Program-made: the position numbers and the translations under genes | In this document: positions 3,490 through 22,610 of the stretch, in pieces | Layout of the letters: the number at the start of each line of letters is the position of its first letter | Numbering within the stretch: position 1 is the first letter of the stretch | The notes under the pieces: generated by a model | The model's database searches: none | Seen by the model: only the letters and a program-made list of their open reading frames with translations | What the model was told of the DNA's origin: nothing | Assembly (NCBI GenBank): GCA_913051705.1 | Contig: CAJXCW010000008.1 | Span: forward strand, 1-46,172 | Length of the DNA stretch: 46,172 nt | Source of the DNA: an uncultured bacterium | GTDB lineage: Bacteria > JAAXHH01 | Direction of reading: 5' to 3'

Positions 3490-3632
3490 CGCCATTCCCG
3501 CAGGCTGTAAGCGGGAATGGCGTAGAGCTTGAAGTGTTCCCAGCGGGAACCTTCCATCCAGCCTCTCCAAGCTATGAATCCCCGCTTAAAGCTACGGGGA
3601 TGACCACCTTTATAACTTTCGTCGTGTACTAT
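3490..3632. repeat. dispersed palindromic repeat, family A copy 2
   Basis: Two hairpins lie between convergent genes. The first has a perfect 12-bp stem (3490-3501 with 3511-3522) built around CATTCCCGC/GCGGGAATG and a 9-base loop. The second is the CCCCGC-type core near 3580-3602, followed by GATGACC. The downstream box with 'aacttt.gtcgtg' matches copy 1. There is no T-run after the stems, so rho-independent termination is not obvious, though the position between convergent genes fits a bidirectional end signal. Confidence 0.8.
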
Positions 3633-3662: not shown

Positions 3663-4970
3663 CTAACTCAGCGCGTTCAAGAATTGATCGATGTCATCAT
3701 CGTTGTTATAGACGGATATGCCGATTCGCATCCCGCTCACGGTCTCTGTCTCTCCCTGTTCGTTGGTTTTGTGCCATTTGCGTTGCGAGACAACACGCTC
3801 ACCGAACGCCTTATTGAGTTTATTTCGCGTGGCTTCTGAGTCGGGAGTCAGGAAGCTGACGATCGGTGTTGGACAGTCCAACGGTGTGATGGAAGGATAC
3901 CCTATCGGCGGCAGCTCTTTCTGTAGACGATCTATGAGTCGTTTGGCGTGGGTCCGGATGTGCTCAACACCGAGCTTTGTTACGTACTTCAGGCCTTCAT
4001 ACGCACAGATTCCAGGCAGGTACCCCATGGTGGTAGTCCCTTCATAGCGGGCAGCCCCTGGACGTGGATCGAAAGAGCCGCTGCCCATCCTAATCTGTCG
4101 CAAGCCATAGCGCGTTTGCTTAATGACGGTCCCCTGAAGGTCCTCGCGTACATACAGAAAACCGAGCCCGAAGTCACCCATCAGCCATTTATAAGTGCTG
4201 GACGCGGCACAATCGATCCCCATAGCCTGGACATCGATAGGCGTGCAACCAGCGCCCTGGATGATATCTCCATAGATCAGCGCCCCATGAGCATGAGCCA
4301 GGTCGCTAATCGCCTTCACCTCGTGCATGTAGCCATTCACGTTTGACACCAACGCCATAGAGACCAGCCGGGTATCCTTATCGATAGCCTTTTCCACATC
4401 AGCCATCTCGATCTTCCAGTCCCGGTGCCGGACCACTCGGAGCTCAATATGGCCCTTCTGGGCTAATGTGGAGTACATATATTCGGATGCCTCGAAATGC
4501 AGATCATCAATAACGACATTGCCACCGCGTTTCTGCAGGTCCAGCCCGGCCACCACGATGTTCTCTCCGTCCGTGGTACTCAAGCAGAACGCGATTTCTT
4601 CCTGCTTTGCGTTGATGATCCCGGCAAAGCGCTGTTTGACCTCATCCTGCATTTCCCGCGTAAAGCTCTTACGCCCCTCACCCGGGCCGAGTGTGCGATA
4701 TTGGGTATAGTTTTCAAGTGCACGCAAGGTGTTGATATTGAAGGGATGGGTCTCGGACGCGGCGAGCCAGAGCTTTCGGGCAGCACGAGGAAAATCAGCA
4801 CGTACGGCCGCAAAGTCCGGTGCGCCTGTAGAAACCGGCTCCGTTCCCGATGGGAATCGGTCCGCGAAGGTCCCCTCTGGATTCGATTTGGAAATGGGCA
4901 GCAAAGCCGTGCTTGCCGCGGCCATAGTGCCGACAAATTCACGCCGGGTAATTTTTGTGTCATCAGCCAT
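3663..4970 (-). CDS. class V aminotransferase-fold PLP enzyme with Tat signal
   Basis: A 435-residue fold-type I PLP enzyme of the class V group, which includes cysteine desulfurases, isopenicillin N epimerases and related lyases. The PLP lysine is visible in SSTYKWLMGDFG, and the cofactor aspartate plus glutamine in GDIIQG. The N-terminus carries a twin-arginine motif (TRREFVG) and an Ala-rich hydrophobic stretch, so the folded holoenzyme is predicted to be exported, which is unusual for this family. The start at 4970 is supported by an AAAGGTG site. It is the last of four minus-strand genes, 38 bases after the secreted protein gene. The reaction cannot be assigned from sequence alone; epimerase or lyase activity is as likely as transamination. 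Confidence 0.85.
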   Translation of the reverse strand: MADDTKITRREFVGTMAAASTALLPISKSNPEGTFADRFPSGTEPVSTGAPDFAAVRADFPRAARKLWLAASETHPFNINTLRALENYTQYRTLGPGEGRKSFTREMQDEVKQRFAGIINAKQEEIAFCLSTTDGENIVVAGLDLQKRGGNVVIDDLHFEASEYMYSTLAQKGHIELRVVRHRDWKIEMADVEKAIDKDTRLVSMALVSNVNGYMHEVKAISDLAHAHGALIYGDIIQGAGCTPIDVQAMGIDCAASSTYKWLMGDFGLGFLYVREDLQGTVIKQTRYGLRQIRMGSGSFDPRPGAARYEGTTTMGYLPGICAYEGLKYVTKLGVEHIRTHAKRLIDRLQKELPPIGYPSITPLDCPTPIVSFLTPDSEATRNKLNKAFGERVVSQRKWHKTNEQGETETVSGMRIGISVYNNDDDIDQFLNALS

Positions 4971-5008
4971 TGTTCACCTTTGGTTGGAAATTGAGTAGCA
5001 GACTCCTC

Positions 5009-5875
5009 TTACCAGCTGCCTGCACCGGGTTTGACGGTAACCTTCACGTGCGCATTGGTCCAGCAACACTGGGCGCCGCCGCCACCCTCGCGAGACACAT
5101 CGTTGGCCTGTAAGCGCAGAATATATTCCCCGGGTGTGGTGAACGTCGCCGTTGTGGTCACCTTGCCATCCGAGGGATCGACATGCGGTTTGGTTTCGCT
5201 GAACGCGACATCGCCAGGCCCTCGGAACTTGCTCCATGTGACGTTGACCGGTGGATCGGAGGCACGGCTGCGTCTGTAGGCGTCAACACGTCCATCATCG
5301 CTCGCCCAGGCTCTCAACATGGTCGGCTCAGCCACCGTGGCATCAAGTGATTGACTGATTTCATGCGGCGGGCCTTGCTGGGTGGATCCCGAATCGAACC
5401 GCAGCACGGGTGGTGTATTCCCTTGCGCCATATCTTTTAAAGGGGAGACCTCCCATAAGGTGGCCAGTCCCATGGGGATCTCGGTCGTCTTATTATGGGC
5501 AACCAGGGTCCAGGTTAACTTATTGTCCCGAAAATCCGCTGGAACAATAATGATAAAAACACCCCACTGCCGGCGCGGTAGAAAGTGCGTCGGCTGACCC
5601 TGGTCCGGTCCACCCGGTTCAATCCGGTTGTTCCGACCGATCGGGATATCAAGCATTTCCGTGTGGTTTCGATTATAGTAGCCGACGAGCAGACTGTACG
5701 TCCCATCCGAGTTGGGGTACCACCCCTCATAGGCCGCCGTCACGCTCTGGCCGGATTCTCGCCCGGGCTCCAGGGGCAACTGCGCCGCAGAGGGTCTACT
5801 CCCGGCAAAGAAGATACATATAGCGACCACAACAGCCGCGCTGATGTGCAACGCAGCTAATCGTTTTAACGGCAT
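5009..5875 (-). CDS. secreted beta-rich protein of unknown function
   Basis: A 288-residue protein with a signal peptide (about residues 1-31, cleavage after the SAA near 'RPSAAQ'). The middle has a YEGWYPN...DGTYSLLVGYYNRN pattern, and the C-terminal third resembles a PKD/cadherin-like beta sandwich, with VTWSKFRGPG and FTTPGEYILRLQAND. The latter is the usual last-strand signature of PKD-type domains. The AGGGGG site in front of the ATG fits. It lies 14 bases downstream of the cytochrome gene, so the two are certainly in one transcription unit. A role as partner or scaffold for the cytochrome-containing protein is inference; no enzymatic motif is seen. Confidence 0.8.
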   Translation of the reverse strand: MPLKRLAALHISAAVVVAICIFFAGSRPSAAQLPLEPGRESGQSVTAAYEGWYPNSDGTYSLLVGYYNRNHTEMLDIPIGRNNRIEPGGPDQGQPTHFLPRRQWGVFIIIVPADFRDNKLTWTLVAHNKTTEIPMGLATLWEVSPLKDMAQGNTPPVLRFDSGSTQQGPPHEISQSLDATVAEPTMLRAWASDDGRVDAYRRSRASDPPVNVTWSKFRGPGDVAFSETKPHVDPSDGKVTTTATFTTPGEYILRLQANDVSREGGGGAQCCWTNAHVKVTVKPGAGSW

Positions 5876-5889
5876 TCGGATAACCCCCT

Positions 5890-7236
5890 TTATTCCATCA
5901 ACGTTCTTTTTTCTACTTCGATCTTGTAATCCTCATCACTCATATATGTGATGTTCACCCAGGCGTGTGCCATCTCGTCCACCGTGCGATCCCCCCAGCC
6001 CACCCACTGATCGGGATCAGGATTATCCCTGTTCGACGCGGTATTATCATGCCACGCCGTGATGATCAGCACCGTACCTGCCGGCAGGAGCGGTGCCGCA
6101 TGATCCGCGTAGACGTAATTGTTATGCCAATCAAACTGGAAGTTGTTTACGTGACTCAGCATCCGCCTTGTGCCATCGGGCAGAATCGCTTCTATCGACA
6201 TCGCCTTGCCCCGCAGGTGCATATGCGCCTGGAAATTCTCGACTCGCCCTGACCGTTTCATCACCTTGATTCCCTGATGTACGGTCTTCGAATTGGGCGG
6301 GATATCCAGCCCCCTGGGGCCTCCGTTAAGGGCATGAAAAAGACCGAGGACCTGCCGATACTTCGGTATTTCATCCTTTGGATAAAAATAAATCGCGAGT
6401 TCCATGGAGGTCGTGATCTCCTCACCCACGGCATGATGGTGGATGTCCCACACGATCTTCGCGCCCGGCAGCATCAGCTTGCCGCTGTTCGGACGCATCA
6501 GTTCACCCTGTTTCCCTACAGCCCACTCCATAAAGAGACCGGGGCCGATATCATCGACCGCATTGGTTCGGGCCGTATTCGTGGGATCTCTTTGCTGCAG
6601 GGCTGCAAGGGCATGATGGGTGATTGTGCGGCCATCCAGCGTGGAAGGCCGTATCTCGATGGCTCGTACCCACCGCGCTTCATTCAGGCCTGTCGCAACA
6701 ACTGGTCTATACCAGATATCCTGGGCAGAGGCCGGCATGGTGTAGGCCGGCGACTCGACGATTAAGTCGGGGTCACCGAACTGTTCGGAAAATATCCAGC
6801 CGTCTCCATCAGGCCAGCTAACCGGCGCCGGCATGTCTTTCTCATCACCCCTTGGCGCACCGGAATCGACCCATTGGACGATCGTATCGATTTGCTTTTC
6901 GGTCAACGATCGGTCATTCTTAAAATCCTGTATGCCGACCGTCTTGTCGATATGCCAGGGCGGCATATCGCGTGTGACCACCGCTTTTTTAAGAGATTTA
7001 GCCCAGGGACGCGCCTCCTTATAACTTACCAGCGACATGGGCGCGATTGAGTTATCCCGATGGCAGGACTCGCACTTTTGCTGAAATATAGGGGCTATAT
7101 CTTTCGTAAATGTTACCCGCTGTCCGGCCGACTGCGCATAAGCCGATGGGGCCAGGAAGGCAAGGAGAGCCCATAGCACCAGCGCACCTGACCATATCCT
7201 CAGCCTTATCAGATTGCGAAACATTGAATTTCTCAT
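5890..7236 (-). CDS. c-type cytochrome with copper-monooxygenase-like C-terminal domain
   Basis: A 448-residue exported protein with a signal peptide ending near AYAQ (residue 35). A heme c site CESCH lies at residues 55-59. Downstream, methionines in IAPMSL and DMPPWH could supply the axial ligand. The C-terminal half carries paired-histidine motifs (DIHHHAVG, QAHMHLRGKAM and TAWHDNT) that resemble the copper sites of the ascorbate-dependent type II monooxygenase fold (PHM/DBM-like). A protein of this layout could oxidise a substrate in the periplasm and pass electrons to or from the heme. The copper ligands are inferred from pattern only. It sits between the HD-domain gene and the secreted beta protein. 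Confidence 0.85.
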   Translation of the reverse strand: MRNSMFRNLIRLRIWSGALVLWALLAFLAPSAYAQSAGQRVTFTKDIAPIFQQKCESCHRDNSIAPMSLVSYKEARPWAKSLKKAVVTRDMPPWHIDKTVGIQDFKNDRSLTEKQIDTIVQWVDSGAPRGDEKDMPAPVSWPDGDGWIFSEQFGDPDLIVESPAYTMPASAQDIWYRPVVATGLNEARWVRAIEIRPSTLDGRTITHHALAALQQRDPTNTARTNAVDDIGPGLFMEWAVGKQGELMRPNSGKLMLPGAKIVWDIHHHAVGEEITTSMELAIYFYPKDEIPKYRQVLGLFHALNGGPRGLDIPPNSKTVHQGIKVMKRSGRVENFQAHMHLRGKAMSIEAILPDGTRRMLSHVNNFQFDWHNNYVYADHAAPLLPAGTVLIITAWHDNTASNRDNPDPDQWVGWGDRTVDEMAHAWVNITYMSDEDYKIEVEKRTLME

Positions 7237-7380
7237 GAGTTACCCCTTTTCACAGGTGGTGTGCGAAAGGAGCTTTATGTACCCCCATGGTAAAAAAAGC
7301 GTATCACACCTGGGGCATGACACGCTTTGTCCATTCGTGCGAAATCAATTATTGAGCGAAATTCTCTTCACTCCAAATGG

Positions 7381-8148
7381 CTAGAGGGGCCGGTGTGGCC
7401 AGATAATGGTGCGCCACATATAGGAGGATTCGGTGTTATCCCATCCAAGCCCTTCCTTCGGCTGTTTGAAATGACGCCCTATGATATCTAAAAACGGCTC
7501 AAGCGTAACCACTTCTTCCCGATCGAAGCTGTATTCGTCCATCATCGTGACGAGCCGCGAGTTCATATACCATTTGTGATTACGCGCATATTTGTAATCC
7601 GCCTGGATGTAGGGTTCCGGCTTGTATTCTTTACCGAAGGAGCGATAATAACTTTCCGGATACTCATAGCCCACATCCGGATCGGGGAAAAAGCGCAGGG
7701 CTTGATGATGGCGTATCGCCCAATGGACTTTTTCGCTGACATAGGGTTTGATTAATGCCGCCCCCCTGTATCCGTGATCGGGGCTGTCCAGTGCGATTCC
7801 CGTGTCGTGCAAAAGGCAGGCTAAAATGACCTCTTCATCAAGTCCCCGTTTGAGGGCATTGTTGGCACTTTGTACACAATGGCTGAATATAAATTTTGGC
7901 AACCGAAGATTGAAGATATCTTCCAGCGTGGGTTTGGCGGGGAGCGGCGTCATTTCTTTTTCTTTTTCTATAAAGGTTTTCCGCGCAGGACGCTGAGCCT
8001 GTCCCTGGCCCTGTTGCATCTCTTCGAACATCATATGTTCGACTTCCTCAGCCAAATCCTCAGAGACGATCCCTGAGGCGTCCGCCTTGGCCAATAATAC
8101 GGCGCCACCAGCGCTTAATGAAGCGATAAAAGTTCTTCTATCCATCAT
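7381..8148 (-). CDS. HD-domain protein, PhnZ-like, with Tat signal
   Basis: A 255-residue protein. The N-terminus DRRTFIASLS is a twin-arginine signal. Metal ligands of an HD fold are visible: H90 (FSHCVQ), H114-D115 (LLHDTG), H125 (DHGYRG), H147/H148 (RHHQAL) and D204 (MMDEYS). The four-His/two-Asp pattern matches the diiron oxygenases of the PhnZ and myo-inositol oxygenase type better than simple phosphohydrolases, though this is a family-level inference. A GGAGG site precedes two adjacent ATGs at 8148 and 8145. It is the first gene of the minus-strand exported cluster, 144 bases before the cytochrome gene. Export of a diiron HD enzyme is unusual. Confidence 0.85.
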   Translation of the reverse strand: MMDRRTFIASLSAGGAVLLAKADASGIVSEDLAEEVEHMMFEEMQQGQGQAQRPARKTFIEKEKEMTPLPAKPTLEDIFNLRLPKFIFSHCVQSANNALKRGLDEEVILACLLHDTGIALDSPDHGYRGAALIKPYVSEKVHWAIRHHQALRFFPDPDVGYEYPESYYRSFGKEYKPEPYIQADYKYARNHKWYMNSRLVTMMDEYSFDREEVVTLEPFLDIIGRHFKQPKEGLGWDNTESSYMWRTIIWPHRPL

Positions 8149-8545
8149 CTACCTCCTATACTGATCGCCGTTTCCGGCAAGGGTTCCCTGCCGGACGGAA
8201 GGCCTGCCCCGCAGGATCATGGTGCAATCATGGTCAGGACCCACCACAGTGGAATAGGGCGAATCCTATTTACTCACCAGATAACTGATGTTCTATAATT
8301 CGGTGTGGTCCTAATTTTTTATATTTGAGGATATCACAACACGACTGTCGTGTACTAAAGATTCTATACATTTATAGATAGCGTATGTCAAGGAAAATAC
8401 CCGGACTAAAAGATTGGTTGCGTGTCGATGTGCTTCCGGGTAAGTTCATTTGTGATTTTGTTATTTTTTAAATAGATACTCCTTCATGCTGGTGATTCTT
8501 CAATTTATTACGACATCCGGCACCATGTCCATCCTGTTGGGGAAT
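8149..8545. other. divergent intergenic region with hairpins
   Basis: About 400 bases separate the divergent HD-domain and livG genes, so promoters for both operons should lie here. An imperfect inverted repeat at 8173-8195 (TCCGGCA arm and TGCCGGA arm) and a small CCTGC/GCAGG hairpin near 8203-8215 lie in the leader of the minus-strand operon. The part from about 8290 to 8480 is AT-rich. I could not fix -35 or -10 boxes with confidence and see no riboswitch pattern. Confidence 0.5.
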
Positions 8546-9283
8546 ATGGCATTGATTTTAGAGATTGAGCAGCTCACTAAAACTTTCGGAGGCTTAATCG
8601 CACTCGATGAGGTTTCATTTGATATCAAAGCTGGTGAAACGCTTGGCCTCATCGGTCCCAACGGATCGGGGAAATCCACGGTCTTTAATGTGGTCACAGG
8701 GATCTATCCGCCGGATGCCGGAAAGATCCGGTTGTGTGGTGAAGAGATCACCTCGCTTCGTGCGCATGACATCGCCGGCAAAGGCATCGCCCGAACCTTC
8801 CAACTGGTAAAGTCTTTTTTACGTCTCACCGCGTTACAGAATGTTACCGCAGGCCGGGTATACGGGCATGAACCTGCGGCAAGTTATGCGCAGGCAGCAA
8901 CAGAAGCGCAAGAGATTCTCGCTTTTATCGGCTTAGAGGATAAGCAGCATGTTGAAGCCCAGTCCCTGCCTATCATGGAACGTAAACGTTTAGAGTTAGG
9001 ACGCGCCCTGGCAACCCGCCCAAGGTTGTTGCTGCTGGATGAATTCATGGCCGGCTTAACACCGGTTGAAATTCAGGCCACCATATCATTGATTACCGAG
9101 CTCAAAGAGCGCGGCATAACCATCGTAGTGGTCGAACATATCATCAAAGCTGTGATGACGTTATGCAACCGGATCATTGTGTTAAATGCCGGACAAAAAA
9201 TTGCCGAAGGGTCTCCAAAGGAAATTTCCACAGACCCGACTGTCATCACCGCCTACCTGGGAAAATCGTATGTTGGCGATTAA
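8546..9283 (+). CDS. livG: branched-chain amino acid-type ABC transporter ATPase 1
   Basis: The ATP-binding subunit of a LivFGHMJ-type importer, about 245 residues from the chosen start. The Walker A motif is GPNGSGKS and Walker B is LLLLDEF with a following MAGL. The signature motif is degenerate (LPIMERKRLELG), as is normal for LivG, which often lacks a canonical LSGGQ. Longer starts at 8486 and 8525 exist, but the conserved family beginning (ALLEVE-like, here MALILEIEQL) and the TTGGGGA just upstream point to 8546. The next ATPase gene overlaps its end by 14 bases. The clustering with aromatic degradation genes downstream suggests that the cargo may be an aromatic acid, not an amino acid; this is inference. 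Confidence 0.9.
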   Translation: MALILEIEQLTKTFGGLIALDEVSFDIKAGETLGLIGPNGSGKSTVFNVVTGIYPPDAGKIRLCGEEITSLRAHDIAGKGIARTFQLVKSFLRLTALQNVTAGRVYGHEPAASYAQAATEAQEILAFIGLEDKQHVEAQSLPIMERKRLELGRALATRPRLLLLDEFMAGLTPVEIQATISLITELKERGITIVVVEHIIKAVMTLCNRIIVLNAGQKIAEGSPKEISTDPTVITAYLGKSYVGD

Positions 9284-9974
9284 GGATATCGATGTATCCT
9301 ATGGTGATGTATCCGTTTTGCGGAGGGTGTCATTAGAGGTTGGCGAAAAATCGATTGTGGCCCTCGTCGGTCCCAATGGGGCCGGTAAAACAACGACGTT
9401 GAGAACCGTCCTGGGTTTGCTCAAACCGACCAGAGGCGCCATCACATTCCGCGGGCAATCGATCACCGACATGGCCACCCATGACATTGTGAATCTGGGC
9501 TTGTACCTTGTGCCGGAGTGGCATGGCACTTTTTCCAGTTTAACGGTTCTGGAGAATCTGGAATTAGGGGCGTTTCCACACAAAGCGCGTGCTTGCAAAG
9601 ATGAAACAATGAACCAGGTGTATGATCTGTTCCCTCGTCTGGCCGAGCGTCATGCTCAGAAAGCCGGTACCCTCAGCGGCGGCGAACGGCAAATGCTGGC
9701 CATCGGCCGGGCATTGATGTCAAAACCGGAGCTTCTTATCCTCGATGAGCCATCTCTGGGATTAGCGCCCATTATTATTGAACAGATATTTGAAATTATA
9801 CAGAAAATCAGTCATGCCGGCATGTCTATTCTTGTGGTCGAGCAACATATCCATATGGCCCTGGAGATCGCCCAATACGCCTACATTATCGAGAGCGGGC
9901 GCATTGTTCAGCATGACTCGGCTGCGGCTCTACTGGATGATGAGCACGTTAAGGAAGCGTATATGGGAATGTAA
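9270..9974 (+). CDS. livF: branched-chain amino acid-type ABC transporter ATPase 2
   Basis: The second ATPase of the importer, 234 residues from the ATG at 9270, which overlaps the livG stop by 14 bases (translational coupling likely). Walker A is GPNGAGKT, the ABC signature is LSGGERQML, and Walker B is LLILDEPSLGL. The D-loop and H-loop (VVEQHI) are present. An in-frame ATG at 9186 lies inside livG and would add a tail that no LivF has. After its stop comes a short tandem repeat, then the permease gene. Confidence 0.92.
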   Translation: MLAIKDIDVSYGDVSVLRRVSLEVGEKSIVALVGPNGAGKTTTLRTVLGLLKPTRGAITFRGQSITDMATHDIVNLGLYLVPEWHGTFSSLTVLENLELGAFPHKARACKDETMNQVYDLFPRLAERHAQKAGTLSGGERQMLAIGRALMSKPELLILDEPSLGLAPIIIEQIFEIIQKISHAGMSILVVEQHIHMALEIAQYAYIIESGRIVQHDSAAALLDDEHVKEAYMGM

Positions 9975-9980
9975 TATCAC

Positions 9981-10008
9981 ATTATGAATTATGAATTATG
10001 AATTATGA
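9981..10008. repeat. tandem heptamer ATTATGA x4
   Basis: Four exact copies of the 7-base unit ATTATGA follow the livF stop codon by six bases. Reverse-oriented versions of the same type occur at 25721-25751 and 32144-32165, each between genes. The pattern resembles the short tandemly repeated repetitive heptamers known from cyanobacteria. Confidence 0.85.
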
Positions 10009-10087
10009 TTGAATAAGCTATTATTTTCAATTAGTTACATGTGTTTAAACGTGATGTTCCAGATGGCAGAAGGTATAACTACTGACT

Positions 10088-10969
10088 ATGTTTGAAACCG
10101 TAGGACAAAATATCGTATCCGGTGTGCTGGTAGGCGCGTTGTATGGGCTGGCTGCATTGGGATTATCGCTGGTATTCGGCGTACTCAAGGTGCTGAATAT
10201 CGCCCACGGTGAACTGATCATGCTGGGCGGCTATGCGGCTTTTTGGATATTTAATCTTTATGGTATTGATCCCTTTTTCGGGTTGCTGCTTGTCATCCCG
10301 ATGCTCTTTATGGTAGGCTGGGTTTTACACAAAGGGTTATTCTCCGCTGTCGTGAAATTCGACGAAGAAGAACGGATTAAAAACTCGATGCTTATCGGGT
10401 TCGGCCTGACCCTGATTCTGCAGAGTGTGGCCATTCAACTGTGGACCGCTGATGAGCGCAGCATCACGACCGCGTATGCCACCGCCTCTCTGGAGCTCGC
10501 TGGTATTCGTCTGCCTGTGGTGCGTCTGGCCGGTTTGATCATTGCTTTGTTGGCTGTTATCGGCCTGGAACTGTTCATGAACCGGACTTATTGGGGCAAA
10601 GCCATGCGGGCAACGGCAGAAAATTGGGAGACGGCATCCTTAACCGGCATAAACATTCAGAAGATTTACCTGATGACCTTTGCTTTGAGCGCCGCTCTGG
10701 CCGGTGTAGCCGGCACGCTGGTGAGTGTCAGTTTCAGTGTGAATCCGGCTATCGGGTTATCCTGGACATTGAAAGCCCTCATCGTTGTTGTTCTCGCAGG
10801 TTTAGGCAGCATCCCCGGCACGCTCCTGGCCGGTGTGTTACTCGGCGTCGGGGAATCAGCAAGCGCCTATCTGGTTGGTGGCGCTTACCGGGAGCTGGTT
10901 GGTCTTTTCCTCTTCCTCATTATTTTAAGCATCCGACCGCAAGGTTTGTTTGGAGGTGGTCGTGCATAA
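10088..10969 (+). CDS. livH: branched-chain amino acid-type ABC permease, LivH family
   Basis: A 293-residue inner-membrane permease with about eight hydrophobic segments. The N-terminus has the family signature (GALYGLAALGLSLVFGVLKV then NIAHGELIMLGGYAAF). The cytoplasmic loop with TAENWETASLTGIN corresponds to the EAA-like coupling region. It pairs with LivM to form the translocation pore. The gene follows livF by about 113 bases containing the heptamer repeat, and its end overlaps the next gene by 8 bases. Confidence 0.92.
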   Translation: MFETVGQNIVSGVLVGALYGLAALGLSLVFGVLKVLNIAHGELIMLGGYAAFWIFNLYGIDPFFGLLLVIPMLFMVGWVLHKGLFSAVVKFDEEERIKNSMLIGFGLTLILQSVAIQLWTADERSITTAYATASLELAGIRLPVVRLAGLIIALLAVIGLELFMNRTYWGKAMRATAENWETASLTGINIQKIYLMTFALSAALAGVAGTLVSVSFSVNPAIGLSWTLKALIVVVLAGLGSIPGTLLAGVLLGVGESASAYLVGGAYRELVGLFLFLIILSIRPQGLFGGGRA

Positions 10970-11876
10970 ACTAAAATGGGGTTTTGTTGCCATTCTAACC
11001 GCCGTTTTATTGCTATTGCCTTTGCTTCCCTTCAGCTCCAACAAAATACTCACCCTGATGATTCAGATGTTTTTGGTGGCCTCCCTGGCCGCCAGTTGGA
11101 ACATTCTGGCCGGGTATGCGGGACAGATTAACCTGGGTCATGCCGCTTTTTTCGGATTGGGGGCGTTAACGACCCGCCTGCTTTGGCTCAATGCGTATCC
11201 GTTTATCCTGAGCTTCCTCGCGGGGGGTGTTGTGGCGACTCTTTTCGCGCTCATCATCGGTGTGCCTGCCCTGCGCCTCAAGGGGATCTACTTTTCCATC
11301 GGTACCCTGGCGCTGGCGGAAATGCTTCGGGTCACGGTCGGCAACGTCCTGCCCGGTATTTCAGCCTTGCCTGCGCCGGATCTCATCAATTATGATCTGG
11401 CGCCGCGATACTATCTGATATCAGGGCTCTGGGTGATCATCGTCGGCGCCTCCTTTTTAATCAGCCGATCCAGAATCGGCCTGGGGATCATGACGGTACG
11501 AGAAGATGAAGACGCCGCCCGCGCCATCGGCGTTAATGTATTCCGGCACAAATTATCGGCTTTTGTCATCAGCGCCTTTTTTACCGGATTGACGGGCAGC
11601 GCCTTTGCTTACTATCACGTGAGCTACTACCCTCAATTCACGTTCAACCCGGTATGGACCTTTGACGCGTTGATCGTGACCTTCATCGGTGGCATCGGCA
11701 CCATCATCGGGCCCATCATCGGCGCCGTGTTTTTTGTCCTGGTCCGAGATGTCTTGACAACCAGCCTGACGGACTTTCATCTTATTATCTTCGGTATTCT
11801 TATAATTGCTGTCGTTCTGCTTTTGCCGGGGGGGTTGGTGGGGTTGTGGCATAGAGCGGTGAGAAGGAAATGGTGA
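10962..11876 (+). CDS. livM: branched-chain amino acid-type ABC permease, LivM family
   Basis: The second permease subunit, about 304 residues. The family pattern SWNILAGYAGQINLGHAAFFG is visible near residue 45, and the coupling loop (VREDEDAARAIGVN) near residue 190. The GTG at 10962 is preferred over a TTG at 10950 because GGAGGT lies at 10952-10957. It overlaps the livH stop by 8 bases. The stop codon lies inside a GTGATTG-type tandem repeat, so the extreme C-terminus may have been shaped by repeat insertion. Confidence 0.92.
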   Translation: MHKLKWGFVAILTAVLLLLPLLPFSSNKILTLMIQMFLVASLAASWNILAGYAGQINLGHAAFFGLGALTTRLLWLNAYPFILSFLAGGVVATLFALIIGVPALRLKGIYFSIGTLALAEMLRVTVGNVLPGISALPAPDLINYDLAPRYYLISGLWVIIVGASFLISRSRIGLGIMTVREDEDAARAIGVNVFRHKLSAFVISAFFTGLTGSAFAYYHVSYYPQFTFNPVWTFDALIVTFIGGIGTIIGPIIGAVFFVLVRDVLTTSLTDFHLIIFGILIIAVVLLLPGGLVGLWHRAVRRKW

Positions 11877-11894
11877 TTTGGTGATTGGTGATTG
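11873..11894. repeat. tandem GTGATTG heptamer repeat
   Basis: One 8-base variant and two exact 7-base copies (GTGATTTG, GTGATTG, GTGATTG) overlap the livM stop codon and run to the edge of the HepT remnant. It belongs to the same class of short tandem repeat as the ATTATGA array, but with a different unit. Confidence 0.8.
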
Positions 11895-12137
11895 AAAAAA
11901 CAGATTAAAATAAATTTGCAGACGTTATCCGAAGCAACTCAGCGGTTATCCGACTCCACAGAGGCCTCCCGGCCATCGGTAGAGTGGCGCAAGATTGCAG
12001 CATTTAAAATTGTCATCGTGCACAATTATCTGGGTATTGATTTAAATATGGTTTGGAACATTCTACAACGAGATATTCCTCCATTGAAGCAGATCATATC
12101 AGACCTGTTTCGCGCGGATCAAGAATCATCTGATTAA
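11892..12137 (+). pseudogene. HepT-like (DUF86) toxin remnant, N-terminally truncated
   Basis: An 81-codon open frame whose first possible start is TTG. From about residue 8 it matches the second half of HepT/DUF86 proteins: NLQTLSEATQRLSD, VEWRKIAAFKIVIVHNY, then LGIDLNMVWNILQRDIPPLK. The RNase-like motif R-x4-H-x-Y is changed to K-x4-H-x-Y, and the N-terminal helices of the usual 110-140 residue protein are missing. No MntA-like nucleotidyltransferase partner lies nearby. It separates livM from the binding-protein gene. I read it as a leftover of a toxin-antitoxin insertion; a functional short protein cannot be excluded. Confidence 0.7.
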
Positions 12138-12147
12138 AGGACCCTGC

Positions 12148-13356
12148 ATGAGACACACTTTAATAGCAGCATTAATCATAGCATTATCTATAACTGGCTG
12201 CGGTGGATCATCTTCTGAAGTACCTGTAGTCATCGAGATAGGGGCTGCGATGCCGTTGACGGGAAAGTATGCGGCGGGTGGGGCAGAGATCCAACGCGGA
12301 TATACCCTGGCGGTGGAGAAGATCAATGCCGACGGGGGCGTCTTTGTCAAAGCATATAACAGAAAACTTCCTCTAAATTTAAATATCCTCGATGATAGCT
12401 CTGACCCAGGTAAGACCGTCAGCCACTTGGAAACGCATTTTTCCGATACTGAGGTCGTCGCCTATCTGGGCGGGTTCGGCAGTGATCTGCACGCGGCAGC
12501 GGCGGCGATTGCCGAAAAAAACCAGGTGCCATATATCGGAGTGGCCTTTGCCCTATGGGGCATCCACCAGCAGGGTTATAAATATCTTTTCTCCCCCTTC
12601 TTTAAATCGCCGGACCTCGGTAAACATGTTTATGAGTTTCTCAATGAAGTTCTGCCTGAGGACCGACGGCCTACCAGAGTTGGTATTTTTCAGGAACAGA
12701 CGGATTGGGGCATCGAGATGGGGGAACTCTGGCGGGACAATGCCCCTGAATATGGATACGAAGTGGTTCAATACGAGGTGTATACGCCGTTTACGAAGGA
12801 CTTCACCGATCTCATTCTCAAAGCACAAGAAGCCGACGTCGAAATACTGCTGGCCTTGCCCACCCCTCCCGATGGGATAACCATTTTCAAGCAGCTGGGC
12901 GAACTCGGTTTTTCGCCCAAATTTTCTCTCTTCGTCCGTGCCCCAGATGTGCCTACGTGGATAGAGTCCCTCGGAAGCATCGGGGATTTCGTCACCTCCG
13001 CTCCCGGCTGGCACCACACACTGGCCTTTCCCGGCGTTGATGAACTGAATGCCGCCCACCAGACCTTAAAGGGGCGGCCGGCCGATCCGTTGGTCGGGCC
13101 CGCCTACGCCGCCGTCCAGATCCTCGCTCAAGCGATTGAAAAAGCCGGATCGCTGGATCGGTCCGCTATCAGGGACGCGATCGCCGCCACCGACCTGGAT
13201 ACTGTCATCGGGCCTGTCACATTCCGCCAGGACGGGACCGGCATTGTAAATAGTCCCATCCTTCAGTATCAGGACGGCCAGGTTGAATTGGTCTGGCCGG
13301 TTGAATATGCTACGGCTGATCTGGTCTATCCTGCCCCGCCATTCGATGCGCGGTAG
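12148..13356 (+). CDS. ABC transporter substrate-binding lipoprotein, LivJ/LivK-like
   Basis: A 402-residue periplasmic solute binder. The signal peptide ends in a lipobox (LSITGC), so the mature protein is a lipoprotein. The start of the type I periplasmic fold is typical: IEIGAAMPLTGKYAAGGAEIQRGYTLA, then a conserved serine region near DDSSDPGKTV. It completes the livGFHM importer. The HepT remnant lies between it and livM. The ligand is unknown. Family members near aromatic catabolism genes often bind aromatic acids, which would suit the downstream pobA-lig operon. Confidence 0.9.
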   Translation: MRHTLIAALIIALSITGCGGSSSEVPVVIEIGAAMPLTGKYAAGGAEIQRGYTLAVEKINADGGVFVKAYNRKLPLNLNILDDSSDPGKTVSHLETHFSDTEVVAYLGGFGSDLHAAAAAIAEKNQVPYIGVAFALWGIHQQGYKYLFSPFFKSPDLGKHVYEFLNEVLPEDRRPTRVGIFQEQTDWGIEMGELWRDNAPEYGYEVVQYEVYTPFTKDFTDLILKAQEADVEILLALPTPPDGITIFKQLGELGFSPKFSLFVRAPDVPTWIESLGSIGDFVTSAPGWHHTLAFPGVDELNAAHQTLKGRPADPLVGPAYAAVQILAQAIEKAGSLDRSAIRDAIAATDLDTVIGPVTFRQDGTGIVNSPILQYQDGQVELVWPVEYATADLVYPAPPFDAR

Positions 13357-16170: not shown

Positions 16171-17343
16171 ATGCGTACGCAAGTCGGTATTATCGGCGGC
16201 GGGCCTGCCGGCCTTTTACTGTCACAACTCCTCCACCTGAAAGGCATTGAGAGCGTTATTCTGGAACGCAGAACCCGGGCATATGTGATGGGTCGAATAC
16301 GCGCGGGGGTTCTCGAATGGGGCACTGTTGAAGTGCTTCGAGATGCGGGGGTGGGCGAACGGATGGACCGGGAAGGTCAGGCGCATGACGGCACAGGCAT
16401 TGTATGGGCGGGCAAAAACCGGCTCTTTATAGACACGTACAAATATGCCGGTAAGCGGCTGATGGCGTATGGTCAGACACAGATCACGGAAGATCTCTAT
16501 GCGGCACGGGATGCCATGGGGGGTGTCATCATTGACGAGGCCGCCAAGGTAACCCCCCACGATATCACGAGCGATACGCCTTACATCACCTATCAAACAC
16601 AAGGGGAAACCCATCGGCTCGATTGTGACTACATTGCCGGTTGTGATGGGTATCACGGCGTCAGCCGCCCATCGATCCCGGCATCGTCACTGCGGACCTT
16701 CGAAAAAGTATATCCCTTCGGATGGCTCGGCATTCTGTCGGAAACGCCCCCGTTGCCCGAAATCGTATACGCCAACCATGAACGGGGCTTTGCGCTGGCG
16801 TCCATGCGCAGTCCGATGCTCAGCCGGTACTATATTCAATGCCCACTCGACACCAATCTTGATGATTGGCCGGATGAGCGTTTCTGGGAAGAGCTCAAAG
16901 CACGTTTCCCGGTAGATCTCGCAGACCAGATTGTCACAGGTCCCTCTATCGAGAAATCTATTGCCCCTCTCCGGAGTTTCGTTGCCGAGCCGATGCGCTA
17001 CGGACGGTTGTTCCTGGCCGGCGACGCGGCGCATATCGTCCCACCGACCGGAGCTAAAGGCCTGAACCTGGCTGTCTCCGACGTCTATTACTTATCAAGA
17101 GCATTCATTGATTTCTATGTGAACAAATCCACCCGCTATCTGGATAGTTATTCCGCAATGGCATTGAGACGGGTATGGGGAGCAGCCCGGTTTTCATGGT
17201 GGTTATCCATGCTGTTGCACCGTTTTCCCGATCAGACGGAATTCGATCGGCGTACACAGGAAGCAGATTTGGACTACCTTGCGTCTTCCGAGGCTGCCCA
17301 ACGGTCTGTGTGCGAGCAATACGCAGGTTTGCCTTTCGAATAA
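16171..17343 (+). CDS. pobA: 4-hydroxybenzoate 3-monooxygenase
   Basis: A flavoprotein hydroxylase that converts 4-hydroxybenzoate to protocatechuate with FAD, O2 and NADPH. At 390 residues it matches the family length (about 394). The FAD motif GGGPAG is at the N-terminus and GDAAHIVPPTGAKG at about 284-297. Substrate and catalytic residues of the Pseudomonas enzyme are conserved with a one-residue offset: Y200, S211, R213, P292 and Y384. The NADPH-side residues R33, Y38, R42 and R44 are also kept. It is the first gene of the protocatechuate operon, with GAGG upstream of the ATG. A TTGACA-like box at about 16053 may belong to its promoter, but the -10 spacing is poor. Confidence 0.97.
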   Translation: MRTQVGIIGGGPAGLLLSQLLHLKGIESVILERRTRAYVMGRIRAGVLEWGTVEVLRDAGVGERMDREGQAHDGTGIVWAGKNRLFIDTYKYAGKRLMAYGQTQITEDLYAARDAMGGVIIDEAAKVTPHDITSDTPYITYQTQGETHRLDCDYIAGCDGYHGVSRPSIPASSLRTFEKVYPFGWLGILSETPPLPEIVYANHERGFALASMRSPMLSRYYIQCPLDTNLDDWPDERFWEELKARFPVDLADQIVTGPSIEKSIAPLRSFVAEPMRYGRLFLAGDAAHIVPPTGAKGLNLAVSDVYYLSRAFIDFYVNKSTRYLDSYSAMALRRVWGAARFSWWLSMLLHRFPDQTEFDRRTQEADLDYLASSEAAQRSVCEQYAGLPFE

Positions 17344-17389
17344 GGCATCCGCTTCTATAACATGAAGAAACCAGGGGAGGTAGTAAACC

Positions 17390-17791
17390 ATGAGCGAATC
17401 CCGCGATTACAATGACATTCCTGGCACCTATGTCATGGACGGGAAGCATTCCCGCAAGGGGTACCATTTGAATATGTTCTGCATGTCCTTGAACAAAGCT
17501 GAGAACCGTGAAGCGTTTCGTGCTGATGAGGAAGCCTATCTGAATACATTTCCGATGACACCTGAACAACGCCAGGCCGTCCTGGACAGGAGCTGGTTGG
17601 AATTATTGAGGCTCGGCGGGAATATTTATTTCACCTTTAAAATCGCCGCCTTTGACCGGCTCAACATGCAGCACCTCGGCGCTGCCATGTCGGATACGCC
17701 CATGACCGAAGAGGAGTTCGCACAAATGATGATCGATGGTGGTCGTTCCATAGAAGGCAACAGAAGCAAAACGGAGGCAAAAAATGGCTAA
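17390..17791 (+). CDS. ligA: protocatechuate 4,5-dioxygenase alpha subunit
   Basis: The small subunit of the extradiol ring-cleaving dioxygenase LigAB, 133 residues, all-helical. Family patterns include IPGTYVMDG near the start and LELLRLGGNIYF in the second half. LigA closes the active site of LigB and does not carry the iron. A GGGAGG site precedes the ATG, and the gene overlaps ligB by 8 bases, as expected for subunits made in equal amounts. Confidence 0.96.
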   Translation: MSESRDYNDIPGTYVMDGKHSRKGYHLNMFCMSLNKAENREAFRADEEAYLNTFPMTPEQRQAVLDRSWLELLRLGGNIYFTFKIAAFDRLNMQHLGAAMSDTPMTEEEFAQMMIDGGRSIEGNRSKTEAKNG

Positions 17792-18623
17792 AATCATCGC
17801 CGGCATAGGCACTTCTCATGTGCCCTCTCTCGGGGCTGCCCTTGACCACGGTAAAACGCAAACGGATTACTGGAAACCTCTTTTCGATGGTCTTGAACCT
17901 GCGCGCCGTTGGATTGCAGAAACCAATCCGGACGTCTGTATTATTATTTTTAACGACCATGCATCGGCTTTTTCACAGGCATTAATTTCCACCTTTGCCA
18001 TAGGGGTTGCCCCTGAATTTCAGCCGGCGGACGAGGGTTATGGACCACGTCAGGTGCCTGTGGTGAAGGGCGACGGCGAGTTGGCCTGGCATATCGCTGA
18101 GTCGTTGATTCTGGATGAGTTCGATATGACGATTGTCAATGAGATGCCGGTAGATCACGGCCTCACGGTGCCGCTGTCTGTGATGTACGATCAGCCTGCG
18201 GAATGGCCTTGTCGGGTGATTCCGGTGTGTGTAAACGTGATCCAATATCCTCAGCCGACAGCAAACCGCTGTTACAATCTGGGAAAAGCCATTCGCAGGG
18301 CGGTCGAATCTTACCCGGAAGACCTTCGGGTGGCTATTGTCGGTACGGGTGGTTTATCACACCAACTGCAGGGCGAGCGCGCCGGTTTGATTAACTCGGA
18401 ATTTGATACGACATTCCTTGAAAAGCTGGTCACCGAGCCGGAAACCATCAAGAGTATGTCACACACCGAATATCTTCGCGAGGCCGGTTCTGAGGGTATC
18501 GAAATGATCATGTGGTTCACCATGCGTGGCGCCCTTGATGATCAGGTCAATGAAATCTATCGTTTCTATCATGTGCCTGCCTCAAATACGGCATACGGTC
18601 TTCTGGTTCTTGAAAACGAATAA
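17784..18623 (+). CDS. ligB: protocatechuate 4,5-dioxygenase beta (catalytic) subunit
   Basis: The iron-containing subunit that opens protocatechuate between C4 and C5 to give 4-carboxy-2-hydroxymuconate semialdehyde. At 279 residues, the Fe(II) ligands of the class III extradiol family are visible: H12 (GTSHVPS), H59 (FNDHAS) and E240 (GSEGIEM). The acid/base histidine is in GTGGLSHQ. The start overlaps the end of ligA, with GGAGG in front. Confidence 0.97.
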   Translation: MAKIIAGIGTSHVPSLGAALDHGKTQTDYWKPLFDGLEPARRWIAETNPDVCIIIFNDHASAFSQALISTFAIGVAPEFQPADEGYGPRQVPVVKGDGELAWHIAESLILDEFDMTIVNEMPVDHGLTVPLSVMYDQPAEWPCRVIPVCVNVIQYPQPTANRCYNLGKAIRRAVESYPEDLRVAIVGTGGLSHQLQGERAGLINSEFDTTFLEKLVTEPETIKSMSHTEYLREAGSEGIEMIMWFTMRGALDDQVNEIYRFYHVPASNTAYGLLVLENE

Positions 18624-18635
18624 GGTGATTTTTAT

Positions 18636-19577
18636 ATGAAAATATGTATGGTAGGTGAAGGGGCTTTTGCCCGCAAGCATCTGGATGCCCTGGCGTGTAT
18701 CGATGGGATTGAAGTCGCTACGATCGTTGGTGGCGTTGCTAAGGACACCGAAGACCTGGCACGGGATCGCGGCATTGCCCACTGGACCACCGATCTGGAC
18801 AAAGGATTGTCTCAGCCGGATGTAGAAGCGGCCATTCTGACATCCCCGACACCGATACACGCCGACCAGGCTGTACAGGTGATGCGCGCGGGCAAGCATG
18901 TCCTGATCGAGATCCCGATGGCCGATTCCCTGGCCGACGCCGAACGGGTGGTGCAAGTGCAGAAAGAAACGGGCATGGTGGCGATGGTTAACCATGTCCG
19001 ACGTTTTAATCCCAGTCATCAATGGGTCCATAACCGGATAAAGACCGGTGAACTCACGATTCAACATCTGGTCGTGGAAACGTACTTCTTTCGACGGACA
19101 AATATGAATGCCCTGGGCCAACCGCGCAGTTGGACCGACCATCTGTTGTGGCACCACGCCTGCCATACGGTAGACCTGTTTCAGTATCAAACCGGCGAAC
19201 CCCCGGTAGATATATACGCCCTCAGCGGACCACATCATCCCGAACTCGGTATTGCGATGGATATGAGCATAGGCATGAAAACAGCTTCCGGTATCCTCTG
19301 CACGCAATCTATGTCGTTTAACAACGATGGTCCCCTTGGCACCTTCTTTCGCTATATCTGCGACAATGGGACCTATATCGCCCGCTACGACGAGCTGGTC
19401 GACGGCAAACAGCAACCGATTGACGTGTCGAACGTCGACGTGTCGCTAAACGGCGTCGAGCTGTGCGACCGCGAGTTCTTCGCGTCCATCAGAGAGGGCA
19501 GAACGCCCGGTACGAGTGTAGAGCAATGTCTTCCCGCCATGCAGACGCTGGATCGATTGGAGAAGGTGCTTAAATAA
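18636..19577 (+). CDS. ligC: 4-carboxy-2-hydroxymuconate-6-semialdehyde dehydrogenase
   Basis: An NAD(P)-dependent enzyme of the Gfo/Idh/MocA fold, 313 residues, that oxidises the ring-cleavage product (as its hemiacetal) to 2-pyrone-4,6-dicarboxylate. The Rossmann start is MVGEGAFARKHLDAL, and the usual EKP motif is replaced by EIPMADS, as in LigC proteins. The C-terminal alpha/beta domain carries HHACHTVDLF. It follows ligB by 12 bases. The assignment rests on family resemblance plus its place between ligB and ligI. Confidence 0.93.
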   Translation: MKICMVGEGAFARKHLDALACIDGIEVATIVGGVAKDTEDLARDRGIAHWTTDLDKGLSQPDVEAAILTSPTPIHADQAVQVMRAGKHVLIEIPMADSLADAERVVQVQKETGMVAMVNHVRRFNPSHQWVHNRIKTGELTIQHLVVETYFFRRTNMNALGQPRSWTDHLLWHHACHTVDLFQYQTGEPPVDIYALSGPHHPELGIAMDMSIGMKTASGILCTQSMSFNNDGPLGTFFRYICDNGTYIARYDELVDGKQQPIDVSNVDVSLNGVELCDREFFASIREGRTPGTSVEQCLPAMQTLDRLEKVLK

Positions 19578-19598
19578 CTGATTAGTTGAGGTCCAACC

Positions 19599-20474
19599 AT
19601 CGTTACCCCGGGCTATTTGCCTTTTCATCCAGAACCGAAAAAACCGGATCAGCCCCTACCGCCGGATACGTGTGACAGCCATTGTCATGTATTCGGTCCG
19701 GCGGCGATATTTCCGTTTGCGGCGAGCAGCACCTATGTGCCGGTAGATGCCCCCCAAGAGACGCTGTTTCAGCGTCACCGGCATCTCGGTATCGATCGGG
19801 CAGTGATAGTGCAGGCCAGTTGTCATGGCACCGACAACGCGGCGATGATGGATGCGCTGAAGGCCGGGGAGAACCGCTATCGTGGGGTGGCGGTGGTTGC
19901 CGATGATATTACCGATCATCAGTTGGCGGATATGCATGCCGTCGGTGTCCGGGGTGTGCGGTTCAATTTCGTGAAAAGATTGGGCGGCGGCAAACCGCTG
20001 GATGTCTACCGCAGGATTCTCGCTAAAATAAAATCGTTTGGATGGCATCTTATCGTCTATTTCGATGCCGAAGATCTTGAAGAGTTGACGCCGTTTTTAG
20101 AATCGATTGAGGTGCCTGTAGTCGTCGATCATATGGGCGTGGTCCCGGTTGAACAGGGGCTGGATTCCACCGCATTTAAACTGCTGCACCGACTGCTCCT
20201 CGGTGACGAAAAGTTCTGGGTGAAGATCAGTTGTCCGGAGCGCCTTTCAAAGACGGGGCCGCCCTATTTAGATGTCGACCCCATCACCCTGAAACTTCTT
20301 GAAAGTGTCCCTGATCGGGTGCTGTGGGGGACGGATTGGCCGCATCCCAATATGAAAACCCACATTCCGGACGACGGCCAACTGGTCGATCGAATCATGA
20401 GGATCTGTGATACCTCCGCGTTGCGGCAGAAGGTGCTGATTGATAATCCGACCCGGTTGTATTGGACGGACTAG
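19599..20474 (+). CDS. ligI: 2-pyrone-4,6-dicarboxylate lactonase
   Basis: An amidohydrolase-superfamily lactonase that opens 2-pyrone-4,6-dicarboxylate to 4-oxalomesaconate. The metal-site-like motifs are DSHCHVFGP near the N-terminus, VVDHMGVVP in the middle and GTDWPHPN near the end. The start is uncertain. The frame is open only from 19590 and has no ATG or GTG before the conserved part. TTG at 19617 has no good ribosome binding site; ATC at 19599 lies six bases after GAGGT and is used here as the outer limit. If TTG is used, the protein has 285 residues. The gene lies 21 bases after ligC. Confidence 0.9.
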   Translation: MVTPGYLPFHPEPKKPDQPLPPDTCDSHCHVFGPAAIFPFAASSTYVPVDAPQETLFQRHRHLGIDRAVIVQASCHGTDNAAMMDALKAGENRYRGVAVVADDITDHQLADMHAVGVRGVRFNFVKRLGGGKPLDVYRRILAKIKSFGWHLIVYFDAEDLEELTPFLESIEVPVVVDHMGVVPVEQGLDSTAFKLLHRLLLGDEKFWVKISCPERLSKTGPPYLDVDPITLKLLESVPDRVLWGTDWPHPNMKTHIPDDGQLVDRIMRICDTSALRQKVLIDNPTRLYWTD

Positions 20475-20574
20475 CTCATGTTACGTGCAAGACCTTGTAA
20501 CGCCCGCAGGAGCGGGCTCCTACCCACCAAACGCCCGCCTATCTTGGTAGGAGCTCGCTCCTGCGAGCGATATC
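20475..20574. repeat. dispersed palindromic repeat, family B copy 1
   Basis: This starts with CTCATGTTACG directly after the ligI stop and contains paired GC-rich palindromes: CGCAGGAGCGGGCTCCTACC and its opposite, GGTAGGAGCTCGCTCCTGCG. The same layout recurs at 41836-41948. It separates ligI from ligK within the operon and could act as an RNA-stabilising or attenuating hairpin. Confidence 0.8.
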
Positions 20575-20623
20575 AGAGATAAATACACCGCGTAATATTA
20601 GTGACTGACAAAGGGGAAACCAA

Positions 20624-21316
20624 ATGAAACCCGTAGCCGTTCGCCATATTGAGCGGACTGATGACGCTGTCGTAGAAAAGCTGGGTGCGCTGGGCGTGGC
20701 CACCGTGCATGAAGCTCAGGGCCGGGCCGGTTTGATGAAGCCTTATATGCGTCCTATTTACGCAGGCGCCAGAATCGCCGGCAGTGCCGTGACTGTTCTC
20801 ACGCAGCCGGGGGACAACTGGATGGTGCATGTAGCCATTGAGTTGTGCCGGCCCGGTGATCTTCTCATCGTCGCCTGCACAGCCGATAACACCGATGGCA
20901 TGTTTGGCGATCTGCTTGCGACGTCTGCCTTAGCACGCGGGGTTAAAGGGTTAATCACAGATACCGGGGTACGTGATGTGCGCGATCTGACGGAGATGAA
21001 TTTTCCAGTCTGGGCGCGGGCAATATCTGCCAAGGGTACGGTCAAAAGCACCCTGGGATGTGTCAATATACCGGTAGTCTGTGCCGGTCAGCTGGTTACG
21101 CCCGGTGACGTGGTCGTGGCCGATGATGATGGGGTGACGGTCGTGCCAAGAAAGAAAGCCCCCGATGTTTTACAAGCCGGCCTTGAGCGAGAAGCAAACG
21201 AGGTCGACAAGCGCGAAAAACTCGGCGCCGGAATGCTCGGTATTGATCTGTACGGGATGCGCCCAAAGCTGGAGCAAGCCGGGTTGATCTATCTGGATAA
21301 TCTGGATGAACTGTAA
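20624..21316 (+). CDS. ligK: 4-carboxy-4-hydroxy-2-oxoadipate aldolase
   Basis: A class II aldolase of the HMG/CHA type (RraA-like fold), 230 residues, that cleaves 4-carboxy-4-hydroxy-2-oxoadipate to pyruvate and oxaloacetate. The metal and catalytic loop is clear: [12 protein letters not shown], then [11 protein letters not shown] with the Arg-Asp pair that binds pyruvate and the divalent metal. AAAGGGG precedes the ATG. It is the final enzyme of the pathway, although not the last gene of the operon. Confidence 0.95.
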
Positions 21317-21348
21317 CTGCAGGGCGGGTGGCAGGTGGTAGGTAAGGG

Positions 21349-21450
21349 TTCGTCATTCCCGCAGGCTTTGAGCGGGCTTCTACGCCGCGAACAGCGGACA
21401 TCCAGCCTCTCCAAGCTATGGATCCCCGCTTAAAGCATGCGGGGTGACGG
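21349..21450. repeat. dispersed palindromic repeat, family A copy 3
   Basis: This begins with GTCATTCCCGCAGGCTTTGAGCGGG and then repeats 'tccagcctctccaagctatg' and the CCCCGCTTAAAG core seen at 3.5 kb, ending GGGGTGACGG. It sits between ligK and ligJ, inside an operon of same-strand genes, so it does not necessarily end transcription. Confidence 0.8.
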
Positions 21451-21521
21451 TTCTATTTACTCCGTTGTACCTCGATGATACGTGACCTTAATTATGAAAT
21501 GGAGTGCTAAGGAGTCAGCAT

Positions 21522-22541: not shown

Positions 22542-22590
22542 AGAGTTAAGAGTGCAGAGTAGAAGCAAAAGCATATTACTCTTCACTGCC
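22530..22590. repeat. AGAGTGA/AGAGTTA heptamer repeat with inverted copy
   Basis: Degenerate 7-base units (AGAGTGA, AGAGTTA, AGAGTGC) start within the last codons of ligJ. An exact 10-bp inverted copy follows (22537-22546 pairs with 22578-22587), giving a possible hairpin with a 31-base loop. It lies between ligJ and the tautomerase gene. Confidence 0.75.
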
Positions 22591-22610
22591 TTTAGATAAA
22601 GAGGTAAACG

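What the first reader, a model, noticed from the sequence alone, without database searches (positions are those of the whole stretch)
3663..8148. Four consecutive genes, all exported: HD oxygenase, cytochrome c/copper protein, beta-sandwich protein, PLP enzyme
Two Tat and two Sec signals are visible in one minus-strand run with gaps of 144, 14 and 38 bases. A diiron-type HD protein, a heme c/copper monooxygenase-like protein and a PLP enzyme do not normally act together outside the cytoplasm. They may form an extracytoplasmic oxidation pathway for one substrate. That joint role is my inference.
Basis: partly seen in the sequence, partly recalled or inferred. Interest (0 to 1): 0.65.

Follow-up and report, generated by a model that had tools for sequence, protein, structure and literature searches.

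The report
Exported heme-copper oxygenase beside HD oxygenase
The four neighbouring genes are real and all appear to make exported proteins, but they look like two separate units: a stand-alone iron (HD-type) oxygenase gene, then a short operon whose core is a cytochrome c fused to a copper oxygenase like those that make animal hormones, which may take its electrons from its own heme.

Summary
In detail: four minus-strand genes, the stated gaps, two Tat-like and two Sec-like N-termini, broadly correct families. The joint-pathway reading does not hold up well. A strong intrinsic terminator (-19.9 kcal/mol, T7 tail, no shuffle as stable) lies in the 144-base gap after the HD gene, so that gene is probably its own transcription unit. 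HD paralogs in the same genome, and orthologs in Chloroflexota, sit without the other three, beside LigXa-type Rieske oxygenases or molybdenum hydroxylases. The PLP family occurs in all 16 phylum genomes held; the loci I read lie elsewhere. Only genes 2 and 3 recur as a pair (one distant genome), and gene 2 also occurs alone. Gene 2 is a CXXCH heme c domain fused to a PHM/dopamine beta-hydroxylase core: a profile of its relatives matches solved DBH (E 1.8e-8) and PHM (E 1e-4), and all six copper ligands are conserved. Gene 1 has the full H..HD..H..H..D motif, nearest TmpB/PhnZ oxygenases, but lacks their YxxE loop. Most likely the second unit is an extracytoplasmic copper C-H hydroxylase wired by its own heme, with a beta-sandwich partner and possibly a PLP enzyme. 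Substrate and electron route are inferred. A new variant of known kinds.

The parts
7381..8148 (-). Gene 1: HD-domain protein, 255 aa, metal motif H90..H114-D115..H125..H148..D204
8089..8148 (-). Tat-like signal of gene 1 (RRTF plus hydrophobic stretch)
   Evidence: sequence; conserved in own-genome paralogs; TatC present
7290..7328 (-). Intrinsic terminator between gene 1 and gene 2 (15-pair hairpin followed by T7)
5890..7236 (-). Gene 2: Sec-exported heme c domain fused to PHM/DBH-type dicopper core (H207 H208 H266; H338 H340 M422), 448 aa
7060..7074 (-). CXXCH heme c motif of gene 2 (residues 55-59)
5009..5875 (-). Gene 3: Sec-exported putative two-domain beta protein, 288 aa; ortholog paired with a gene-2 relative in G295
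3663..4970 (-). Gene 4: Tat-exported class-V PLP enzyme, 435 aa, Schiff-base lysine K261, no cysteine where desulfurases carry theirs
3490..3522 (-). Hairpin with weak T tail downstream of gene 4, possible end of the unit

Best explanation
Two neighbouring transcription units, both for extracytoplasmic chemistry, not shown to share a substrate. Unit 1 is the HD gene alone, closed by a strong terminator: a Tat-exported HD-domain protein nearest to the PhnZ/TmpB oxygenases, probably loaded with two irons and folded before export, oxidising an organic substrate linked to aromatic catabolism. Unit 2 is genes 2-3-4. Gene 2 is a cytochrome c domain fused to a PHM/DBH-type dicopper monooxygenase. I infer that the heme takes electrons from an extracytoplasmic donor and reduces the CuH site (a role ascorbate plays in the animal enzymes), that CuM activates O2, and that a C-H bond of a small substrate is hydroxylated. 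Gene 3 is its partner, possibly a scaffold or substrate-binding protein. Gene 4 is a Tat-exported class-V PLP enzyme that in this genome joins the unit and may process an amine or amino acid. Shown by sequence: gene order, terminator, ligand sets, family relationships, the gene 2-3 pair, independent occurrence of genes 1 and 4. Inferred: metal and heme loading, electron route, substrate, role of gene 3, link of gene 4.
For: Terminator in the 144-base gap: -19.9 kcal/mol, z -6.4, no shuffle as stable, T7 tail. HD paralogs on C206 and C78 of the same genome lie with molybdenum-hydroxylase or Rieske/LigB genes and without genes 2-4; Chloroflexota orthologs lie with Mo hydroxylase and Rieske genes. 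HD motif complete in all members long enough to show it; best solved relatives TmpB 3.3e-9 and PhnZ 4e-7, hydrolases far weaker. Gene 2: CXXCH and all six copper ligands invariant in seven proteins including the window's; the profile matches DBH 1.8e-8 and PHM 1.1e-4 with HH, H, HxH and DEM aligned. Gene 2-3 pair in G295, same order and strand. PLP family in all 16 phylum genomes, read loci in other settings. TatC and heme-c assembly proteins present.
Against: The gene 2-3 pair was seen in only one other genome, whose 23 order-mates lack gene 3, so it may reflect transfer or contamination. Gene 2 alone in G014 (65% identical) shows that gene 3 is not obligatory. Terminators can be leaky, and two units can still serve one pathway. 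Copper, iron, heme, oxygenase activity and electron route are unmeasured. Matches of the gene 2 family to Pfam copper families are below or at cut-off and AF2 from one sequence failed.
Confidence: 0.58

Rival explanations
1. One four-gene extracytoplasmic oxidation pathway for a single substrate, newly assembled in this lineage from parts that occur independently elsewhere.
For: Consecutive, same strand, all exported, gaps of 14 and 38 bases within genes 2-4; the HD family and the window's downstream genes both point to aromatic catabolism.
Against: Strong terminator after gene 1; genes 1, 2 and 4 each occur without the rest; no second four-gene locus found in the 16 phylum genomes or the 400 Chloroflexota genomes sampled.
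Confidence: 0.17
2. Gene 2 is not an oxygenase but a heme-copper sensor, electron-transfer or copper-handling protein on a PHM-like scaffold.
For: Some paralogs keep the heme motif but have lost the copper ligands; a paralog cluster carries a heavy-metal-binding (HMBD) protein.
Against: All six catalytic ligands, including the CuM methionine in a DEM motif, are invariant in the window protein and six relatives and align with PHM.
Confidence: 0.15
3. Gene 1 is an exported HD phosphohydrolase rather than a diiron oxygenase.
For: Dinuclear HD phosphatases exist: the review's Table 1 lists YqeK as a dinuclear Fe diphosphatase; the YxxE loop of PhnZ/TmpB is absent.
Against: Closest sequence relatives are the oxygenases TmpB and PhnZ and NCBIfam phosphonate HD oxygenases; neighbourhoods are oxidative aromatic catabolism.
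Confidence: 0.2

Closest known systems
Dopamine beta-hydroxylase (4ZEL) and peptidylglycine alpha-hydroxylating monooxygenase (1PHM, 1OPM)
   Same: Core by profile alignment; all six copper ligands (HH, H, HxH, M); works outside the cytosol.
   Different: Gene 2 carries an N-terminal heme c domain, is bacterial and sits beside gene 3; reductant inferred to be heme c rather than ascorbate; similarity visible only with a profile.
PhnZ and TmpB HD-domain diiron oxygenases
   Same: Complete H..HD..H..H..D motif, conserved HxxQ segment, best sequence relatives in PDB and NCBIfam.
   Different: Tat-like signal, longer protein, no YxxE loop before the first histidine, no phosphonate genes seen nearby; scores far below equivalog cut-offs.
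PvdN and PtaA, Tat-exported periplasmic PLP enzymes of pseudomonads
   Same: PLP enzyme with Tat signal (PvdN profile match E 3e-9).
   Different: Gene 4 scores 36 bits against a cut-off of 650 for PvdN; no pyoverdine genes seen in the window.
SufS-type cysteine desulfurases
   Same: Class-V fold and lysine (E 2.5e-34).
   Different: Far below the curated cut-off; no cysteine after residue 366, where the catalytic cysteine would lie; exported.

Membership tests
PHM/DBH type-II dicopper monooxygenases (gene 2) | CuH ligands H, H, H | tested here: met
   H207, H208, H266 invariant in seven proteins and aligned to PHM/DBH
PHM/DBH type-II dicopper monooxygenases (gene 2) | CuM ligands H, H, M | tested here: met
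   H338, H340, M422 invariant; DEM aligned to PHM SSDEM
PHM/DBH type-II dicopper monooxygenases (gene 2) | Score over the Pfam Cu2_monooxygen/Cu2_monoox_C cut-offs | tested here: not met
   Window protein: no match; relatives 20.1-20.4 bits against 23, one at 23.2
PHM/DBH type-II dicopper monooxygenases (gene 2) | Copper content and O2-dependent hydroxylation | not testable with these tools
   Needs purified protein
c-type cytochromes (gene 2) | CXXCH heme motif with candidate distal methionine | tested here: met
   C55, C58, H59 invariant in nine proteins, M91 in eight; Pfam cytochrome c scores of the window protein are below cut-off
[quoted passage not shown]
   H90, H114, D115, H125, H148, D204; criterion from PMC8177086
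PhnZ/TmpB subgroup (gene 1) | YxxE substrate loop before the first histidine | tested here: not met
   Absent upstream of H90
PhnZ/TmpB subgroup (gene 1) | NCBIfam equivalog cut-off | tested here: not met
   24.6 bits against 214.6
[quoted passage not shown]
   Needs spectroscopy and assay
Class-V PLP aminotransferase fold (gene 4) | Aminotran_5 profile and Schiff-base lysine | tested here: met
   149 bits against 21.5; K261
Cysteine desulfurase (gene 4) | Catalytic cysteine in the C-terminal loop | tested here: not met
   Cysteines only at 129, 242, 254, 322, 366; the expected site is further towards the C terminus (own knowledge of SufS)
PvdN (gene 4) | NCBIfam equivalog cut-off | tested here: not met
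   36 bits against 650
One conserved four-gene system | Co-occurrence of the four families in the same order elsewhere | tested here: not met
   None in 16 phylum genomes or 400 Chloroflexota genomes (gene 4 was not searched in Chloroflexota); other phyla could not be searched

The most novel reading that the evidence does not exclude
Gene 2 is a self-wired copper monooxygenase: a PHM/DBH-type dicopper core that draws its electrons through a fused heme c from the extracytoplasmic electron-transfer chain instead of from ascorbate. Beside it stands an exported clade of HD diiron oxygenases, so that two different O2-activating chemistries work outside the cytoplasm in one bacterium, feeding the protocatechuate pathway encoded nearby.
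Probability: 0.35. Interest if true: 0.65.

Novelty: new variant of a known kind. Interest (0 to 1): 0.45.

Why it matters
The characterised PHM/DBH enzymes known to me are animal enzymes that take electrons from ascorbate. A bacterial version with its own heme c would show another way to feed electrons to the two copper sites and would offer a simple model for their long-range electron transfer. HD-domain oxygenases characterised so far (MIOX, PhnZ, TmpB) are, to my knowledge, cytoplasmic; a Tat-exported clade tied to aromatic catabolism would extend where and on what they act. I found no paper on either in the library searched, which is weak evidence only.

Tried and rejected
AF2 on single sequences of genes 2 and 3 gave unusable models (mean pLDDT 30.7 and 44.6), so no fold search was run. 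Plasmid searches with genes 2 and 3 found nothing; with gene 1 they found distant, shorter HD relatives without a visible signal. Viral-contig scans found nothing. A cysteine-desulfurase reading of gene 4 was rejected for lack of the cysteine. A phosphonate pathway for gene 1 was rejected: no phosphonate genes seen nearby and no YxxE loop. The built-in terminator scan missed the terminator; it was found by reading the gap and folding it.

Full report
What is there. The four genes are at the stated coordinates, all on the minus strand, with gaps of 144, 14 and 38 bases. Genes 1 and 4 start with Tat-like segments and genes 2 and 3 with Sec-like ones (sequence). The RR motif of gene 1 is kept in its two own-genome paralogs, and Tat-like PLP relatives occur across the phylum. 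The genome encodes TatC and heme-c assembly proteins. By my reading about 9 of 36 genes in the window look exported, so a run of four is expected about 0.13 times by chance; the automatic heuristic is over-inclusive, flags 15 of 36 and gives about 1. The run itself is therefore not strong evidence of a system.

A terminator splits the run. The 144-base gap after gene 1 holds AAAGCGTGTCATGCCCCAGGTGTGATACGCTTTTTTTAC. Folded as RNA it gives a 15-pair hairpin at -19.9 kcal/mol (z -6.4, 0 of 200 shuffles as stable) that ends in a T run. Gene 1 is thus probably its own transcription unit. Genes 2, 3 and 4 are close together, and a hairpin with a weak T tail follows gene 4.

Gene 1. Pfam HD (E 2.7e-5) and weak matches to phosphonate HD oxygenases. 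A profile of seven relatives finds TmpB (3.3e-9) and PhnZ (4e-7) as the best solved structures, with hydrolases much weaker. The H..HD..H..H..D motif that binds the diiron cofactor in MIOX, PhnZ and TmpB (PMC8177086) is complete; the YxxE loop of PhnZ/TmpB is absent. The own genome has two further copies at 51-54% identity: one beside Mo-hydroxylase subunits (assigned by eye) and a cytochrome b561, one in a region with a LigB-type protein, an ABC transporter (by eye) and a Rieske oxygenase with a LigXa C-terminal domain. Orthologs in Chloroflexota, without a Tat signal in the one read in full (L006), lie with a Mo hydroxylase, a MetE-like protein and the same kind of Rieske oxygenase. None of these loci has genes 2-4. 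The family is tied to aromatic catabolism, not to the other three genes.

Gene 2. Nine proteins share CXXCH; seven of them, including the window's, also keep H207, H208, H266, H338, H340 and M422. The profile of the copper part matches dopamine beta-hydroxylase (1.8e-8) and PHM structures (1.1e-4), and the PHM alignment places HH, H, HxH and the DEM methionine on the catalytic ligands. Scores against the Pfam copper families are below or at cut-off. Two paralogs keep the heme motif but lost the copper ligands. In G014 a 65% identical protein stands alone between phytanoyl-CoA-dioxygenase-like genes (assigned by eye), with no gene 3 in that genome.

Gene 3. No family match above cut-off. One full-length relative (37% identity) lies directly after a gene 2 relative (44%) in G295, same strand and order. 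The 23 other genomes of that order lack it, so this is one independent instance and could be transfer or contamination. Its N-terminal part also occurs in a large Chloroflexota exoprotein. The conserved residues include no obvious metal-binding set.

Gene 4. Class-V PLP fold, lysine K261, no cysteine at the desulfurase site. Relatives at about 35% identity or less occur in all 16 genomes of the phylum held; the Tat-like ones read stand in other settings. Tat-exported PLP enzymes are known: PvdN and PtaA (PMC6206403).

Setting. Divergent from gene 1 lies a liv-type ABC transporter (8486-13356) and then a protocatechuate 4,5-cleavage set: pobA, a ligA-like gene (by eye), ligB, a dehydrogenase, a lactone-hydrolase-like protein, ligK, an amidohydrolase and the oxalomesaconate tautomerase. 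This makes an aromatic substrate plausible for gene 1 and possible for genes 2-4; it is inference.

Mechanism. For gene 2 I propose: heme c accepts an electron outside the cytoplasm, passes it to CuH, CuM binds and activates O2, and a C-H bond is hydroxylated. The ligand set and domain fusion are shown by sequence; loading, electron route and substrate are inferred. Gene 3 is the likely partner; gene 4 a possible upstream or downstream step. Gene 1 is a separate exported oxygenase.

Limits. Only the home phylum (16 genomes) and a sample of 400 Chloroflexota genomes could be searched; other phyla may hold more pairs or even the four-gene order. No confident structure was obtained. No paper on a heme c-fused PHM/DBH enzyme or an exported HD oxygenase was found in the open library searched, which does not prove novelty.

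Noticed in passing
window 16171-23687: Near-complete protocatechuate 4,5-cleavage set (pobA, ligA-like 17390-17791, ligB, ligC/I/J-like, ligK, oxalomesaconate tautomerase) downstream of a liv-type ABC transporter.
   Followed up: partly
L032:3319-7442 and L034:458-4406: A gene 2 paralog sits in a second conserved cluster in two genera of the phylum: a 208-aa secreted protein, a heavy-metal-binding (HMBD) protein and an ornithine-cyclodeaminase-like protein, same order.
   Followed up: partly
L033:2968-4239 and L015:490-1740: Gene 2 paralogs that keep the heme c motif but have lost the copper ligands.
   Followed up: partly
L005:12707-16032, L006:6800-11264, L064:3876-7072: HD oxygenase-like gene near a Rieske oxygenase with a LigXa C-terminal domain in two phyla; a recurrent pairing that may define the HD family's role.
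   Followed up: partly
L054:5447-12001: The N-terminal domain of gene 3 recurs inside a giant Chloroflexota exoprotein of more than 2000 residues.
   Followed up: no
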